From an uncultured Ralstonia sp. (GTDB lineage: Bacteria > Pseudomonadota > Gammaproteobacteria > Burkholderiales > Burkholderiaceae): a DNA stretch of 64,000 nt. The stretch lies in assembly GCA_913056305.1 (NCBI GenBank), contig CAJXMR010000002.1, forward strand, positions 1 to 64,000. The letters are read 5' to 3'. The notes beneath the pieces are model-generated. The model saw only the letters and a program-made list of their open reading frames with translations. It had not been told where the DNA came from and made no database searches. Each line of letters starts with the position of its first letter. Position 1 is the first letter of the stretch. A program made the position numbers and the translations under genes. This document shows positions 47,798 to 52,323 of the stretch, one piece after another.

Positions 47798-49267
47798 ATG
47801 ACGCGTCAAACCCTGGCACGCAGCGCGGCCGGCCTGGCCGCAGTGATCGCCGTTGCGGGCGGCTATGCCTATCTGCAGAAAGACATGATCTCGCACGCGG
47901 TGGCGGCGCCCCTGGCAGCCGCTGCCGCGCCTGCGGCAACGGCCCCGGTGGCCGTGGCGGCGCCGATGGATTTCTCCGGCATCGTCGAGCGCTACGGCCC
48001 GGCGGTGGTCAACATCAGCACCACGGCGCACGCACAGCGCACCGGCATGCAGGGCCTGCCGCCCGGCATGAGCCCGGACGATCCGTTTGCCGAGTTCTTC
48101 AAGCGTTTCATGCCGCAGGTGCCGCAGCAGCAGGGCGACCAGCTCGTGCGTGGTCTGGGCTCGGGCTTCATCGTCTCGGCCGATGGGCTGATCCTGACCA
48201 ACGCGCACGTGGTCGACGGCGCGCAGGAGGTCAACGTCAAGCTGACTGACCGCCGCGAGTTCAAGGCCCGCGTGCTGGGCGTCGACAAGCAATCCGACGT
48301 GGCGGTGCTGCGCATCTCGGCCAACAACCTGCCGATCGTGCAGATCGGCAGCCCGGCCAACACCAAGGTGGGTGAGCCGGTGCTGGCGATTGGCTCGCCG
48401 TACGGCTTCGAGAACACCGTCACGGCGGGCATCGTGAGCGCCAAGTCGCGCTCGCTGCCCGACGATACCTACGTGCCCTTCATCCAGACCGACGTGGCCG
48501 TCAACCCCGGCAACTCGGGCGGCCCGCTGTTCAATCAGCGCGGCGAGGTGATCGGCATCAACTCGCAGATCTACAGCCAGACCGGCGGCTACCAGGGCCT
48601 GTCGTTTGCCGTGCCGATCGACGTGGCGATGAAGGTCGAGCAGCAGCTCGTGGCCACCGGCAAGGTCACGCGAGGCCGGCTGGGCATTGCGGTGCAGGAG
48701 GTCAACCAGGCGCTGGCCGATTCCTTCAAGCTGCCCAAGCCCGAGGGCGCGCTGGTCAACTCGGTGGAGAAGGACGGCCCAGCCGCCCGCGCCGGCCTGC
48801 AGCCCGGCGACGTGATCCTGCAGATCGGCGACGCGCGCATCGACCATTCGGGCGATCTGCCCGAACAGGTGGCCGAGATCAAGCCGGGCACCGCCGTGCC
48901 ACTGCAGATCATGCGTCAGGGCAAGCCGACCACGCTGTCGGTAACGGTGGGTGCGGCCAAGGACACCAAGGTGGCCGCCAAGGATGCCGCCACCCCCGAT
49001 CAAGGCCGCCTGGGCCTGGCGGTGCGCCCGCTGCAGCCCGAAGAAAAGCGCCAGAGCGGCCTGCCCGGCGGCCTGGTGGTGATGGATGCGACGGGGCCCG
49101 CCGCCAAGGTCGGCATCCAGCCGGGGGATGTGATCCTGTCGCTCAACGGCACGCCGGTGTCGAGTGCGCAGGAGCTGCGCACCCTGGTGGATCGGGCCGG
49201 CAAGCACGTTGCCCTGTTGGTGCAGCGCGACGACACGAAGATCTTCGTGCCACTGGACCTGGGTTAA
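47798..49267 (+). CDS. Periplasmic DegP/DegQ-type serine protease (HtrA family)
   Basis: 489 residues. N-terminal membrane/signal segment (SAAGLAAVIAVAGGYAYL), trypsin-like domain with triad His137 (LTNAHVVDG), Asp167 (KQSDVAVLRI) and Ser240 (NPGNSGGPLFN), followed by two PDZ domains (about 290-370 and 405-485; the second ends in a GDVILSLNGTPV loop). It degrades or refolds damaged envelope proteins. It follows the two-component genes and a PmrA-like box, so it is a likely target of that system, as HtrA genes are in several envelope-stress circuits. A strong terminator follows. Confidence 0.94.
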   Translation: MTRQTLARSAAGLAAVIAVAGGYAYLQKDMISHAVAAPLAAAAAPAATAPVAVAAPMDFSGIVERYGPAVVNISTTAHAQRTGMQGLPPGMSPDDPFAEFFKRFMPQVPQQQGDQLVRGLGSGFIVSADGLILTNAHVVDGAQEVNVKLTDRREFKARVLGVDKQSDVAVLRISANNLPIVQIGSPANTKVGEPVLAIGSPYGFENTVTAGIVSAKSRSLPDDTYVPFIQTDVAVNPGNSGGPLFNQRGEVIGINSQIYSQTGGYQGLSFAVPIDVAMKVEQQLVATGKVTRGRLGIAVQEVNQALADSFKLPKPEGALVNSVEKDGPAARAGLQPGDVILQIGDARIDHSGDLPEQVAEIKPGTAVPLQIMRQGKPTTLSVTVGAAKDTKVAAKDAATPDQGRLGLAVRPLQPEEKRQSGLPGGLVVMDATGPAAKVGIQPGDVILSLNGTPVSSAQELRTLVDRAGKHVALLVQRDDTKIFVPLDLG

Positions 49268-49303
49268 GCCAGGATCGATCGGAATTACGGACTTTGCATG
49301 TTG

Positions 49304-49340
49304 CGGCGCGCGCCTGGAAACGGGCCGCGCCGTTTTTCTT
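49304..49340 (+). terminator. Rho-independent terminator of the protease gene
   Basis: CGGCGCG/CGCGCCG outer stem plus CGCC(T)/(G)GGCG inner pairs around GGAAAC, followed by TTTTTCTTT at 49333-49341, 37 bp after the stop codon. Confidence 0.85.
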
Positions 49341-49562
49341 TGGCGCGCGGTTTGCCGTGCGCGTTGATGGGGCGCAAAGTCCCTTCACGCCGCTCTGGCT
49401 AGCTACGTTTCTTTACGATTTAATACGAAGTATCCGAATGCGCACCGCATCGGCTGCTTCCAGTGGCTGATACGTCACGCGTTCGGTCGTAAAGGACCTG
49501 TTGTTCCACGGCTCATCGCGTCTGCTGGCCGGATGGCAACGATCCATCGCCCCGAGCACGAC

Positions 49563-50060
49563 ATGCATTTCGCCCGCACCCGCAAGAGACTGACCGCCTG
49601 GCTTGGCCTGGCGGCGATGGTGCTCGTGTTCTTCGCGCCGGTGGTGAGCCAGCAGCTTGCATTGCACGCGCTGCATACGGCAGCCGAGCATGCTGTGCCG
49701 CCCTGCGAGGCGCAGCCGATGGCCGCCGCCGACTGCGAAATGCCGGCCGATCATCACATGTCGGCCGGGCACGAGATGCCGGTCGAGCACCAGATGCCGG
49801 CCGAACACCACATGCTGGCCGGGCATCACATGCCGGTCGAGCACTCCGCGCCGGCTGACCATCACACGCCAGCCGACCATCACGCGGCATGTGGCTATTG
49901 CGACCTGCTGGCGCACCACGTGCCTGCGCCGCTGCCGATCGTGCCGATGGCGCAGCCTGCGCCCGACCATGCGCTGGCGTGGCGGGCGGCGTCCGAACGC
50001 CTCGCCGTGCACGAGGTGCGGCACGCCGGGCGGCCCCGCGATTCTCCTTTCCTCGCCTGA
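49563..50060 (+). CDS. DUF2946 protein with His/Met-rich hexapeptide repeats, probable metal (copper) binding
   Basis: 165 residues from the ATG at 49563 (an in-frame ATG at 49533 is possible). An export helix (TAWLGLAAMVLVFFAPVVSQ) is followed by HALHTAAEH and the DUF2946-typical Cys pair CGYCDLLAHH at 110-113. Between them, residues 60-107 are eight six-residue repeats of the type MPAEHH. His and Met spacing of this kind binds copper or silver in periplasmic proteins, and DUF2946 genes often lie near copper genes; both points are family knowledge, the copper role here is inference. The next two genes also carry Cys motifs. Confidence 0.85.
   Translation: MHFARTRKRLTAWLGLAAMVLVFFAPVVSQQLALHALHTAAEHAVPPCEAQPMAAADCEMPADHHMSAGHEMPVEHQMPAEHHMLAGHHMPVEHSAPADHHTPADHHAACGYCDLLAHHVPAPLPIVPMAQPAPDHALAWRAASERLAVHEVRHAGRPRDSPFLA
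49740..49883 (+). repeat. 18-bp coding tandem repeat, 8 units
   Basis: Eight in-frame 18-bp units encode MPADHH, MSAGHE, MPVEHQ, MPAEHH, MLAGHH, MPVEHS, APADHH and TPADHH. Units have diverged at synonymous and non-synonymous positions; the last two have lost Met. The array could change in copy number by slippage and so vary between strains. Confidence 0.9.
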
Positions 50061-50200
50061 TCACACCCGTTTGGACGGCCTTCCCGCGCAGCATTGGTGC
50101 CGCGCGGGCGTCGGCCGCCATCCAACTAGAACATAGCGCGCGACGCATCCGGCCGTAGTCCGGACGCGCGTTCGCGCACGATCAAGGGTGAGGAAACCTC

Positions 50201-51262
50201 ATGAAAACGCAACCGAAGACCCTCAGGCGAGCCATGCTGCTCGCCTGTGCCGCCGGCCTGTTCGCGCCGGTCGCGGCGCACGCCTGCGCCACCTGTGGCT
50301 GCTCGCTCAGCACCGATGCCGCGATGGGCTACTCCGCCATCCCGGGCTGGCGCATCAGCCTGGACTACTCGTATATCCCCCAGAACCAGCTGCGCAGCGG
50401 CACCGGGTCGGTCACGCCGGCGCAAGTGGCGGCCATCAATGACGCGGGCGGCAACCAGGAGGTCGAGCGCCAGACCATCAACCGCTACATCAACCTCGGC
50501 ATCCACTACAGCCCGAACAGCAGCTGGAACTTCAGCGCGATCGTGCCGTACGTTGAGCGCGGGCACACCACCTACGGCGCGGTCACGTCGGATCAAATCA
50601 CGCCCGCCAACATCAGCGGCGCCAACGCCAACGGCCTGGGCGACATCAAGCTGATCGCCAGCTACCAGGGCATCCTGCCCACGCACAACCTGGGCGTGCA
50701 ACTGGGCGTCAAGCTGCCGACTGGCCGCTACGGCGGGCAGAACACGCTGACCGGTGCCACGGTCGGGCGCAACCCGGTGTTCTTCAACAGCGGGCCCAAC
50801 GCGGCGGGCGGGCAGGCCCTGGACACCAGCCTGCAGCCCGGTACCGGCAGCACCGACCTGATCCTGGGCGCCTACTACTACCAGCCCGTCAGCCAGGATT
50901 TCGACGCCTTCGTCAACGGCCAATTCCAGGCGGCCGTGCAGCAAAGGTTGCGCGACACCGGCGCCGACTTCCGCCCCGGCAACACCGCCACCATGAGCTT
51001 TGGCCTGCGTTACGAGGCCAATCCGCACGTCGTGCCGCAGCTGCAGTTCAACGTCACGCGCAAGAACGCCGACAAGGGCGCGTTGGCCGATACCACCAAC
51101 ACGGCCGGCACGGTGGTGTACCTGTCGCCGGGCGTGACGGTGAGCGTGGCGCACAACATGCAGGTCTATGCCTTCCTGCAGAAGGCGGTGTACAGCAACT
51201 TGCAGGGCTACCAGCTGTTCCCGCGCTGGTCGGGCACCGTGGGAGCCAGCTATGCGTTCTGA
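50201..51262 (+). CDS. Exported outer-membrane beta-barrel protein with N-terminal CxxCxC motif
   Basis: 353 residues. A signal peptide ends near VAAHA, directly followed by [11 protein letters not shown], which puts three closely spaced cysteines at the mature N-terminus. The rest alternates aromatic and polar residues ([62 protein letters not shown]) and ends in GTVGASYAF, as expected for a transporter-like outer-membrane barrel. The CxxCxC could bind a metal or be kept reduced by the thioredoxin encoded next. GAGG lies before the ATG. Substrate unknown. Confidence 0.85.
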
Positions 51263-51809
51263 AGTGGAGATGCCTTCAACGCAAGCCTGGTCGCGGCGTG
51301 GGTGGCTGCGGGCGGCCGGCGCGCTGGCGCTGGGCGCCGGGCTGGCAGGTCGGCAACCCGAGGCGCAGGCGGCCAGCCTGGAGGTGGGGCGGCCAGCGCC
51401 GCCCCTGACCCTGCGCACCCTGGACGGGCACAGCATCGCCACCGAAGACCTGCGCGGCAAGGTGGTGGTGCTGACCTTCTGGGCGACGTGGTGCGAGCCC
51501 TGCCGCCAGGAGCTGCCGCTGCTGTCGGCCTACGCCGCGCGCCATGCCGACCGCGGCCTGCGCGTGCTCGGCTTCAGCCTGGACGAACCGGGCGAGCTGG
51601 CGGCGGTGCGTGAGGTGGCGGCAGGGCTGAGCTTTCCGGTGGGCCTGCTCGGCAGCCCCTACGCCGGGGGCTACGGCCGGGTCTGGCGGATCCCCGTGAA
51701 CTTCACGATCGACCGCAACGGCATGCTGGCCGACAACGGCTGGGACACGCGCGACGCCGCCTGGACCGCCGAGCGCCTGGAGCGCGTTGTCACACCGCTG
51801 TTGCGCTGA
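51252..51809 (+). CDS. TlpA/ResA-like thiol-disulfide oxidoreductase with Tat-type signal
   Basis: 185 residues from the ATG at 51252, which has GGGAG six bases upstream and overlaps the preceding gene by 11 nt. A twin-arginine motif ([20 protein letters not shown]) suggests export. The AhpC/TSA-Redoxin core shows [23 protein letters not shown] with the active pair Cys81/Cys84 and the cis-Pro region [13 protein letters not shown]. Such proteins reduce periplasmic cysteines, for example those of copper or heme delivery proteins. Coupled to the CxxCxC barrel gene, it may serve those cysteines. Confidence 0.88.
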
Positions 51810-51972
51810 CGGCGCAGACTGCTGGCCACCGCGCGGGCGCCGTCGAGCGTGCCTGCGCGGCGCCAGCATTGACTTCGCACGTGCCGTTTCCCGCGAAGGC
51901 AGGTATCATGCGGGCTACGCGCCGTTTTCGTCTGCAAAGCCAGCAACGGCGCGGTGAGCTGAGCGCACGACG

Positions 51973-52323
51973 ATGGATTTCAACCCCGATCTGGAAGGTT
52001 TGCCGCTGTTCGCCAAACCCGCATTCGGCTGGGAGGAACCGGCGTCGGCGTCGTCAGCGGACACCCCGCCTGCCAAACCCCGCCGCCCGCGCCAATGGCG
52101 TGGTCCCATCACACACTGGGAACGCGGCTACCGCTCCCATTACTACCGCGACAAGCGCGGCAAGAAGCTCGGCGAGATCCACTTGAGCACGCGCGGCCAA
52201 CTGCCGCTGGTGTACCGCTGGCTGGCTGGCACGCTCTCAGGCGTGGAGGGCTCGCTGTCGCACGCCCGCCTGCGGGTGGAAGAGTCCATCGGGTTTGGGA
52301 TGCGGCAGATGGCGCTGTTCTGA
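51973..52323 (+). CDS. Small conserved protein of unknown function
   Basis: 116 residues, soluble, rich in Arg and Trp: a Pro/Ala-rich N-terminal third, then RQWRGPITHWERGYRSHYYRD and KLGEIHLSTRGQLPLVYRW. I do not recognise a domain. The start is chosen because the chain begins with a compact MDFNPDLEGLPLF; upstream there is only a weak ribosome site. Codon use is like the neighbours, supporting a real gene. Confidence 0.6.
   Translation: MDFNPDLEGLPLFAKPAFGWEEPASASSADTPPAKPRRPRQWRGPITHWERGYRSHYYRDKRGKKLGEIHLSTRGQLPLVYRWLAGTLSGVEGSLSHARLRVEESIGFGMRQMALF

What the first reader, a model, noticed from the sequence alone, without database searches (positions are those of the whole stretch)
49563..51809. 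Candidate undescribed metal-handling trio: His/Met-repeat protein, CxxCxC barrel and TlpA-like thioredoxin
Three neighbouring exported proteins each carry metal or thiol chemistry: the repeat protein, an outer-membrane barrel with CATCGC at its mature N-terminus, and a CEPC thioredoxin whose gene overlaps the barrel gene. The arrangement suggests capture of a soft metal, passage through or sensing at the outer membrane, and thiol upkeep. I know of no described system with exactly this set.
Basis: inference. Interest (0 to 1): 0.75.

Follow-up and report, generated by a model that had tools for sequence, protein, structure and literature searches.

The report
Copper-sensing leader controlling a membrane barrel
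The three genes look like a copper-uptake unit in which the first makes a throw-away sensor peptide whose stalled ribosome probably uncovers the start signal of a little-known outer-membrane barrel that is paired with a thiol-reducing helper.

Summary
The three proteins are real and correctly placed. The reading changes. The His/Met "repeat protein" is a DUF2946 (CruR-type) leader: CXXC, 45 residues, RDSP, 3 residues, the geometry of the copper-responsive arrest peptide CruR with RAPP altered to RDSP. Its repeats are an 18-nt tandem array that 11 aligned relatives lack. New here: the leader's last codons are complementary to the next gene's ribosome-binding site. True pairs beat swapped pairs in 52 of 59 non-redundant leaders (z -8.8), including 18 DUF2946 leaders drawn without regard to the barrel; 121 ordinary gene pairs give z -0.7 to -1.5. 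A ribosome stalled on the leader would unmask the barrel gene. Barrel (CxxCGC, PF13557/FapF-like) and TlpA form a unit: both in the same 8 of 16 Ralstonia genomes, TlpA downstream in 63 of 80 relatives. Copper is indicated by neighbours in some relatives: PCuAC (once fused to TlpA), TonB receptors, PepSY_TM, CopC/CopD. Barrel function (copper entry or hand-off) is inference; the structure prediction never finished.

The parts
49563..50060 (+). DUF2946 (CruR-type) exported leader peptide, 165 aa
   Evidence: PF11162 36.3 bits over cut-off 23.7; alignment with relatives
49740..49876 (+). 18-nt tandem array (7.6 copies) that encodes the His/Met repeats
   Evidence: the 11 aligned relatives have 1-2 units by pattern count
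49890..49901 (+). CXXC (CGYC) codons, putative copper sensor site
   Evidence: read; spacing of 45 aa to RDSP computed
50037..50048 (+). RDSP codons, in the place of the RAPP arrest motif, 3 residues before the end
   Evidence: RAPP role from PMC9426467 section 9
50048..50058 (+). leader-tail anti-Shine-Dalgarno segment (uuuccucgccu)
   Evidence: duplex -17.4 kcal/mol with the barrel ribosome-binding site
50186..50196 (+). Shine-Dalgarno segment of the barrel gene (gggugaggaaa), paired with the leader tail
50201..51262 (+). outer-membrane beta-barrel, PF13557/FapF-like, 353 aa
50285..50302 (+). CATCGC codons, Cys triad at the predicted mature N-terminus
51252..51809 (+). TlpA/ResA-like thioredoxin with twin-arginine-like signal (SRRGWL), overlapping the barrel gene
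   Evidence: adjacency in relatives
51489..51503 (+). WCEPC active-site codons of the TlpA-like protein
   Evidence: read; WCxPC in 60 of 63 relatives

Best explanation
A copper-responsive translational attenuator in front of a copper-acquisition pair. (1) While the DUF2946 leader is being made, its CXXC senses copper; [quoted passage not shown] (2) New step proposed here: the ribosome held there covers the leader's last codons, which otherwise pair with the Shine-Dalgarno of the barrel gene; the barrel and the overlapping tlpA are then translated. With copper the leader is finished, the ribosome leaves and the site is masked again (Rho termination, shown for B. pertussis CruR, may follow). 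(3) The barrel carries a CxxCGC triad at its periplasmic N-terminus that binds Cu(I) arriving at the outer membrane and passes it on, for instance to PCu(A)C; TlpA keeps the triad reduced, as periplasmic thioredoxins do for copper sites of the oxidase pathway. Shown by computation: leader geometry, leader-tail/SD complementarity, gene linkage, copper neighbours in some relatives. Inferred: arrest by RDSP, direction of the copper response, barrel as copper route, TlpA substrate.
For: Leader: PF11162 match; CXXC-45-RDSP-3, the CruR spacing; a leader upstream of the barrel in 59 of 80 loci (38 with CXXC, 21 without); R[AGDS]PP near the C-terminus in 51 of 99 ORFs of 100-300 aa just upstream of the barrel against 11 of 2139 other ORFs of the same stretches, four of the 11 being DUF2946 leaders themselves. 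Masking: matched against swapped pairs z -5.97 (41 barrel leaders), z -6.11 (18 other DUF2946 leaders), z -8.76 for all 59 (52 of 59 better than swapped mean); synonymous recoding of the tail weakens it (Wilcoxon p 1.2e-5; window: 4% of 300 variants as good); 121 ordinary gene pairs z -0.74 and -1.53, and z -1.45 for the 104 with longer gaps; computed SD openness in the window 0.02 free against 0.32 with the ribosome at RDSP, mean 0.24 to 0.39 over 60 loci, up in 48. Unit: barrel, TlpA and this leader in the same 8 of 16 genus genomes; TlpA downstream in 63 of 80 and adjacent, either strand, in 16 of 26 further loci. Copper: L024 leader-PepSY_TM-PCuAC-leader-TonB receptor-barrel-TlpA next to CopC/CopD; PCuAC in 14 of 80 stretches; TlpA-PCuAC fusion; OprC-type receptor and Cu-ATPase neighbours in one locus each.
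Against: The window's own motif is RDSP, not RAPP; changing both Pro to Ala in CruR abolished downstream expression, so arrest by RDSP is unproven. 21 of 80 loci have no leader by my test and 21 more lack CXXC. Rho, not SD masking, is the published CruR mechanism. One control segment of the leader (-60..-28) shows a weak signal (all 59: z -1.97, p 0.025; also z -1.69), and ordinary gene pairs reach p 0.07 in two of three versions. In one close relative (L019) modelled openness falls slightly on stalling. In the 26 order-level loci only 6 showed the leader by the test (plus L133, where it precedes PCuAC), and of 12 barrel loci in the phylum sample only 3 have both leader and same-strand TlpA. 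66 of 80 stretches show no PCuAC match. No experiment on metal response of this barrel was found; no structure was obtained.
Confidence: 0.66

Rival explanations
1. CruR exactly as published: the leader acts only through Rho-dependent termination between leader and barrel; the tail/SD complementarity is incidental.
For: Rho mechanism shown for B. pertussis CruR (PMC9426467 section 7); moderate C>G stretches in the window (78-nt windows starting about 49801-49901 and 50001-50081).
Against: Complementarity is specific to matched leader/gene pairs, near absent in other leader segments and not significant in ordinary gene pairs; synonymous codon choice favours it.
Confidence: 0.2
2. CutF-type polarity: copper strengthens the arrest, so the barrel and TlpA are induced by copper and serve detoxification or repair of oxidised thiols.
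For: CutF of Rhodobacter works this way with a masked cutO Shine-Dalgarno (PMC9973294); a review calls CutF DUF2946-like (PMC10502375 passage).
Against: CXXC and 45-residue spacing are those of CruR, not the CxxxC of CutF; the copper neighbours found are mainly acquisition and delivery genes (TonB receptors, PepSY_TM, PCuAC, CopC/CopD), though a Cu-ATPase also occurs.
Confidence: 0.15
3. One reading: the His/Met-repeat protein is a periplasmic metal-capturing protein that hands metal to the barrel.
For: The window protein holds 22 His and 10 Met in 165 aa and looks exported by sequence.
Against: Repeats are an 18-nt array; close relatives with 87-89% identical barrels have 8-9 His and 1-2 units; conserved are the signal segment, CXXC and the C-terminus; leader pairwise dN/dS 0.24-0.47 against 0.05-0.16 for the barrel.
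Confidence: 0.07
4. The barrel is not a copper channel but a periplasm-facing assembly or electron-transfer protein whose Cys triad is a disulfide switch served by TlpA.
For: Its only solved relative by profile, FapF, exports amyloid (recalled; hit); only thiol chemistry, not metal binding, is directly readable from the sequence.
Against: Recurrent copper neighbours in several lineages and a copper-type leader.
Confidence: 0.25

Closest known systems
CruR-BfrG(CrtA)-CrpH operon of Bordetella pertussis (Roy 2022, PMC9426467; passages of PMC12914433, PMC13038864)
   Same: DUF2946 leader first, CXXC to RAPP-position spacing of 45, 3 residues to the end, long intergenic region (140 nt here, 162 there), outer-membrane barrel second.
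   Different: Second gene there is a 22-strand TonB-dependent receptor, here a small barrel without TonB-receptor domains and with a Cys triad; third gene there PepSY_TM, here TlpA; RDSP for RAPP; masked Shine-Dalgarno proposed here, Rho termination shown there.
CutF-CutO-CutG of Rhodobacter capsulatus (PMC9973294)
   Same: Exported leader; Shine-Dalgarno of the next gene masked and opened by a stalled ribosome.
   Different: CxxxC and Pro-rich end there; stem-loop lies between the genes there, while here the masking strand is the leader's own last codons; client is a multicopper oxidase there.
SecM-secA and other RAPP/RAGP arrest peptides (passages of PMC10987492; section 13 and passages of PMC12992588)
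   Same: C-terminal arrest motif in an exported small protein that uncovers the next gene's Shine-Dalgarno.
   Different: SecM monitors protein export; here metal is the likely signal. RDPP was partly permissive in ApdA/ApdP; RDSP was not in the passages I read.
TlpA/PCuAC/ScoI copper delivery to cytochrome oxidase (passage in PMC13038864)
   Same: Periplasmic thioredoxin plus copper chaperone; TlpA-PCuAC fusion next to the barrel in L135.
   Different: The proposed thiol client is an outer-membrane barrel.
FapF, Pseudomonas outer-membrane amyloid transporter (PDB 5o65, 5o67, 5o68)
   Same: Only solved relative found by profile search below E 0.01 (E 4e-4).
   Different: The Cys triad lies outside the aligned stretch (profile 69-289); very low similarity.

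Membership tests
DUF2946 (Pfam PF11162) | score over Pfam gathering cut-off | tested here: met
   36.3 bits against 23.7
CruR (functional type) | CXXC motif | tested here: met
   CGYC at residues 110-113
CruR (functional type) | C-terminal RAPP arrest motif | tested here: not met
   RDSP in the window; RAPP, RGPP or RDPP in most relatives with a leader, RDSP in 6 of 80 loci. Hence not filed as CruR; 'works like CruR' is kept as inference
CruR (functional type) | 45 residues between the motifs, within one or two | tested here: met
   45 in the window; 44-46 in 37 of 38 relatives with CXXC as printed; the 38th (L062, printed 40) is 45 when counted to its final RGPP
CruR (functional type) | copper-dependent, Rho-dependent control | not testable with these tools
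   needs expression data
CutF (functional type) | CxxxC, and Pro-Pro within the last 15 residues | tested here: not met
   CxxC; end ...HAGRPRDSPFLA; criteria
CutF (functional type) | masked Shine-Dalgarno of the next gene | tested here: met
   computed openness 0.02, fold z -2.70; computation only
TlpA/ResA-type thioredoxin | AhpC-TSA/Redoxin domain with WCxxC | tested here: met
   PF00578 66.4 bits over 26; WCEPC
TlpA/ResA-type thioredoxin | NCBIfam curated cut-off for ResA or TlpA | tested here: not met
   ResA 73.9 of 170, TlpA 49.7 of 230; so TlpA-like, not filed as TlpA
PF13557 outer-membrane barrels | Pfam cut-off | tested here: inconclusive
   window protein no match; 25 of 62 alignment members match at E<=0.1, best 2.4e-10
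TonB-dependent copper receptors (OprC, CrtA) | plug and 22-strand barrel domains | tested here: not met
   no Plug or TonB_dep_Rec match in the 353-aa protein at E<=1
Outer-membrane copper channel | copper transport | not testable with these tools
   needs uptake assays; structure job unfinished

The most novel reading that the evidence does not exclude
DUF2946/CruR leaders across Pseudomonadota share one built-in switch: the leader's own last codons are an anti-Shine-Dalgarno for the next gene, so a metal-sensing nascent chain directly gates translation; and one client is a new, TonB-independent family of outer-membrane copper-entry barrels that carry a Cu(I)-binding Cys triad on the periplasmic side, kept reduced by a dedicated TlpA and unloaded by PCu(A)C.
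Probability: 0.35. Interest if true: 0.82.

Novelty: new variant of a known kind. Interest (0 to 1): 0.66.

Why it matters
PMC12914433 states that few copper-specific outer-membrane transporters are known and that those belong to the TonB-dependent superfamily (passage). A recurrent, leader-controlled barrel without TonB-receptor domains and with its own thiol reductase would add a second kind of copper entry or hand-off at the outer membrane. The leader-tail/Shine-Dalgarno complementarity, found also in DUF2946 loci drawn without regard to the barrel, offers a simple testable link between the published CruR (termination) and CutF (masking) mechanisms.

Tried and rejected
Rejected or empty: lipoprotein anchoring of the barrel Cys (0 of 77 lipoboxes); Rfam element in 49200-52000 (0 hits); intrinsic terminator or consensus promoter by simple scan (0 found); similar DNA in the plasmid collection (no megablast match); peroxiredoxin role of the third gene (WCxPC in 60 of 63 relatives). 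The first comparison of leader tails with other windows of the same leader (mean z -1.19 over 60; in 16 of 60 at most one control window was as good) was not trusted because Pro codons feed any Shine-Dalgarno; it was replaced by matched/swapped, synonymous and ordinary-pair tests. In one search the pattern printed TTPP/TSPP for L042, L046, L062; the sequences end in RAPP, RAPP, RGPP motifs. The first pattern for the Cys motif was faulty and was redone. Barrel and next-gene start codons were chosen by rule (best Shine-Dalgarno, ATG favoured), not by annotation, and the stall position was set by rule for all loci. In one search, one of 30 loci (L192, cut by a contig end) was dropped; L195, whose tail does not look like a leader end, was kept; the next genes were not scanned for families. 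From the order survey only the 30 best-scoring places were fetched as loci, 26 of them new. No random-locus background was run for PCuAC neighbours. Barrel/TlpA distance correlation r 0.79 over 58 loci is also expected from shared species history.

Full report
What is there. The window most likely lies in a Ralstonia genome (inference: the closest barrels are from Ralstonia and Burkholderiaceae records, 83-88% identical). Three co-directional genes, 49563-51809, encode a 165-aa exported-looking DUF2946 protein, a 353-aa outer-membrane barrel and a 185-aa TlpA-like thioredoxin whose start lies inside the barrel's end. The genes upstream have response-regulator, sensor-kinase and DegP-type protease domains; I saw nothing that links them to the trio.

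The first gene is a leader peptide by what can be read. DUF2946 is the family of CruR, a copper-responsive upstream ORF of Bordetella pertussis that is proposed to sense copper by a nascent CXXC and to stall at a C-terminal RAPP, with 45 residues between the motifs and three after (PMC9426467: abstract and sections 5-11 read). Arrest of CruR was shown in vitro (PMC12992588: section 13 and passages). The window leader has CGYC, 45 residues, RDSP, three residues. RDSP departs from RAPP; relatives show RAPP, RGPP, RDPP and RDSP. RDPP was partly permissive for related arrest peptides; I found nothing on RDSP in the passages read. The same genome has a second leader, with RAPP, in front of a TonB-receptor-like gene (the receptor was read by eye, not scanned).

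Leader and barrel belong together. Of 80 loci found with the barrel profile (the best 80 of 406 confirmed relatives), 45 have a DUF2946-like ORF upstream by my profile and 59 have a leader when RxPP-ending small ORFs are included, 38 of them with CXXC. As a control, R[AGDS]PP within seven residues of the end occurs in 51 of 99 ORFs of 100-300 aa ending just upstream of the barrel and in 11 of 2139 others on the same stretches; four of the 11 are themselves DUF2946 leaders. In an even sample of 398 Pseudomonadota genomes 13 have the barrel; of the 12 other than the window's, 7 have a leader, 5 have TlpA next on the same strand (a sixth convergent), 2 have PCuAC, and only 3 have both leader and same-strand TlpA.

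A masking helix, apparently new. Folding 50040-50230 showed the leader's last codons paired with the barrel's Shine-Dalgarno (z -2.70). I tested whether this is specific. Taking the last eight codons (stop included) plus eight bases of each leader and the -20..+3 region of the next gene, true partners pair better than partners swapped between loci: z -5.31 over 41 loci non-redundant by barrel, z -5.97 over 41 loci non-redundant by leader. In 29 of 30 fetched DUF2946 loci (the best-scoring ones of 349 genomes of the phylum; many next genes look like TonB receptors or PepSY_TM proteins from their first residues, not scanned), z is -8.55, and -6.11 for the 18 that are non-redundant. Over all 59, 52 true pairs beat their swapped mean. 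Controls: leader segment -100..-68 z -0.63 (all 59); segment -60..-28 z -1.97 (p 0.025), a weak signal I cannot exclude as base composition or a longer helix; intergenic +10..+42 z -0.21 and 0.10; 121 ordinary co-directional gene pairs z -0.74 (p 0.23; 56 of 121 better), or z -1.53 (p 0.07) without the eight extra bases and z -1.45 (p 0.07) for the 104 with longer gaps. Synonymous recoding of the tail with the next gene's codon usage weakens the pairing (Wilcoxon p 1.2e-5 over 59; 41 barrel leaders p 2e-5, 18 others p 0.04; window in the best 4%). Modelled openness of the window's Shine-Dalgarno rises from 0.02 to 0.32 when a ribosome is placed at RDSP, and only to 0.08 when it is 30 nt upstream; over 60 loci the mean goes from 0.24 to 0.39 (up in 48; L019, a close relative, goes slightly down) and is 0.25 for the upstream position. 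The masked-site principle is known from SecM (PMC10987492 passages) and, with an intergenic stem-loop, from CutF (PMC9973294 abstract, sections 10-12 and passages). For CruR the published mechanism is Rho-dependent termination; the listing counts no occurrence of Shine-Dalgarno in that paper. I searched the held library for DUF2946 (10 papers), DUF2946 with copper (7), CruR with copper and Bordetella (6), DUF2946 with TlpA (0) and for copper, arrest peptide, Shine-Dalgarno and uORF (19 with at least three of four terms, 15 listed) and saw no report of this pairing in what I opened or in the listings; subscription papers are not held.

Barrel and TlpA. Within the genus, the barrel is in 8 of 16 genomes (including the window's), this TlpA in the same 8 and this leader in the same 8, while all 16 keep another DUF2946 leader: the trio is present or absent together. 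TlpA lies downstream on the same strand in 63 of 80 loci. In 26 further loci (from the 30 best-scoring places in 399 Burkholderiales genomes, 81 of which have a barrel), TlpA is adjacent in 16, six on the same strand and ten convergent, while a leader was seen in 6. A distant barrel on a Nitrospirota plasmid also has TlpA two genes on. The triad CxxCGC is present in 77 of 80 and sits where signal peptidase I should leave it at the very N-terminus; N-termini of such barrels face the periplasm (general knowledge). Periplasmic thioredoxins reduce copper-site cysteines before metal insertion in the oxidase pathway (passage of PMC13038864).

Copper. In L024 (Burkholderia guangdongensis) the order is leader, PepSY_TM, PCuAC, leader, TonB receptor, barrel, TlpA; facing it on the other strand lie leader, a second PF13557-like barrel (20.4 bits, just under the cut-off of 22), CopC and CopD. 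PCuAC matches lie in 14 of 80 stretches, CopC/CopD in 2; PCuAC lies beside the barrel in L119 and L133 and, as a TlpA-PCuAC fusion, in L135; an OprC-type receptor (TIGR01778, 450.7 bits over about half the model; cut-off 472 for the whole) lies beside the barrel in L120 and a copper-type P-ATPase in L127. No neighbour that I classified indicated another metal, but neighbours were classified only in selected loci.

Judgement. The regulatory part is a member of DUF2946 that works like CruR with a CutF/SecM-like masking step; I do not file it as CruR because its RAPP is altered. The barrel is a PF13557/FapF-like protein of unknown structure; copper entry or hand-off is the best inference, not a result. 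The AlphaFold job was accepted and was unfinished at every collection.

Noticed in passing
L024:7750-10469 (minus): A second DUF2946 leader heads another PF13557-like barrel (20.4 bits, cut-off 22) followed by CopC and CopD, so such barrels may be a recurrent partner of copper import genes.
   Followed up: partly
L135:2174-3133: TlpA and PCu(A)C copper chaperone fused in one 319-aa protein directly after the barrel.
   Followed up: yes
L068, L069, L071, L072, L074-L080, L084, L088 (upstream of the barrel): Leaders that keep RAPP/RGPP but lack CXXC (the second Cys is gone where I looked), some very His-rich; they may sense differently.
   Followed up: partly
L040-L046, L051 (Thiomonas and kin, upstream of the barrel): RAPP-ending small proteins with a PYC motif and no DUF2946 match in the one member scanned (L046), ahead of barrel, PCuAC (7 of these 8) and TlpA.
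   Followed up: partly
L001:1232-1639: Second DUF2946 leader of the window's genome, with RAPP, in front of a TonB-receptor-like gene whose Shine-Dalgarno its tail can also pair with (-16.1 kcal/mol; 4 of 45 control windows as low).
   Followed up: yes
L111, L112 (Candidatus Manganitrophus plasmids): Distant barrel, then (in L111) a protein with a weak beta-propeller match or (in L112) several small hypothetical proteins, then TlpA, with Tn3 transposase pieces upstream.
   Followed up: partly
window 49740-49876: 18-nt tandem array inside a reading frame, coding His/Met repeats; a likely source of strain variation.
   Followed up: yes
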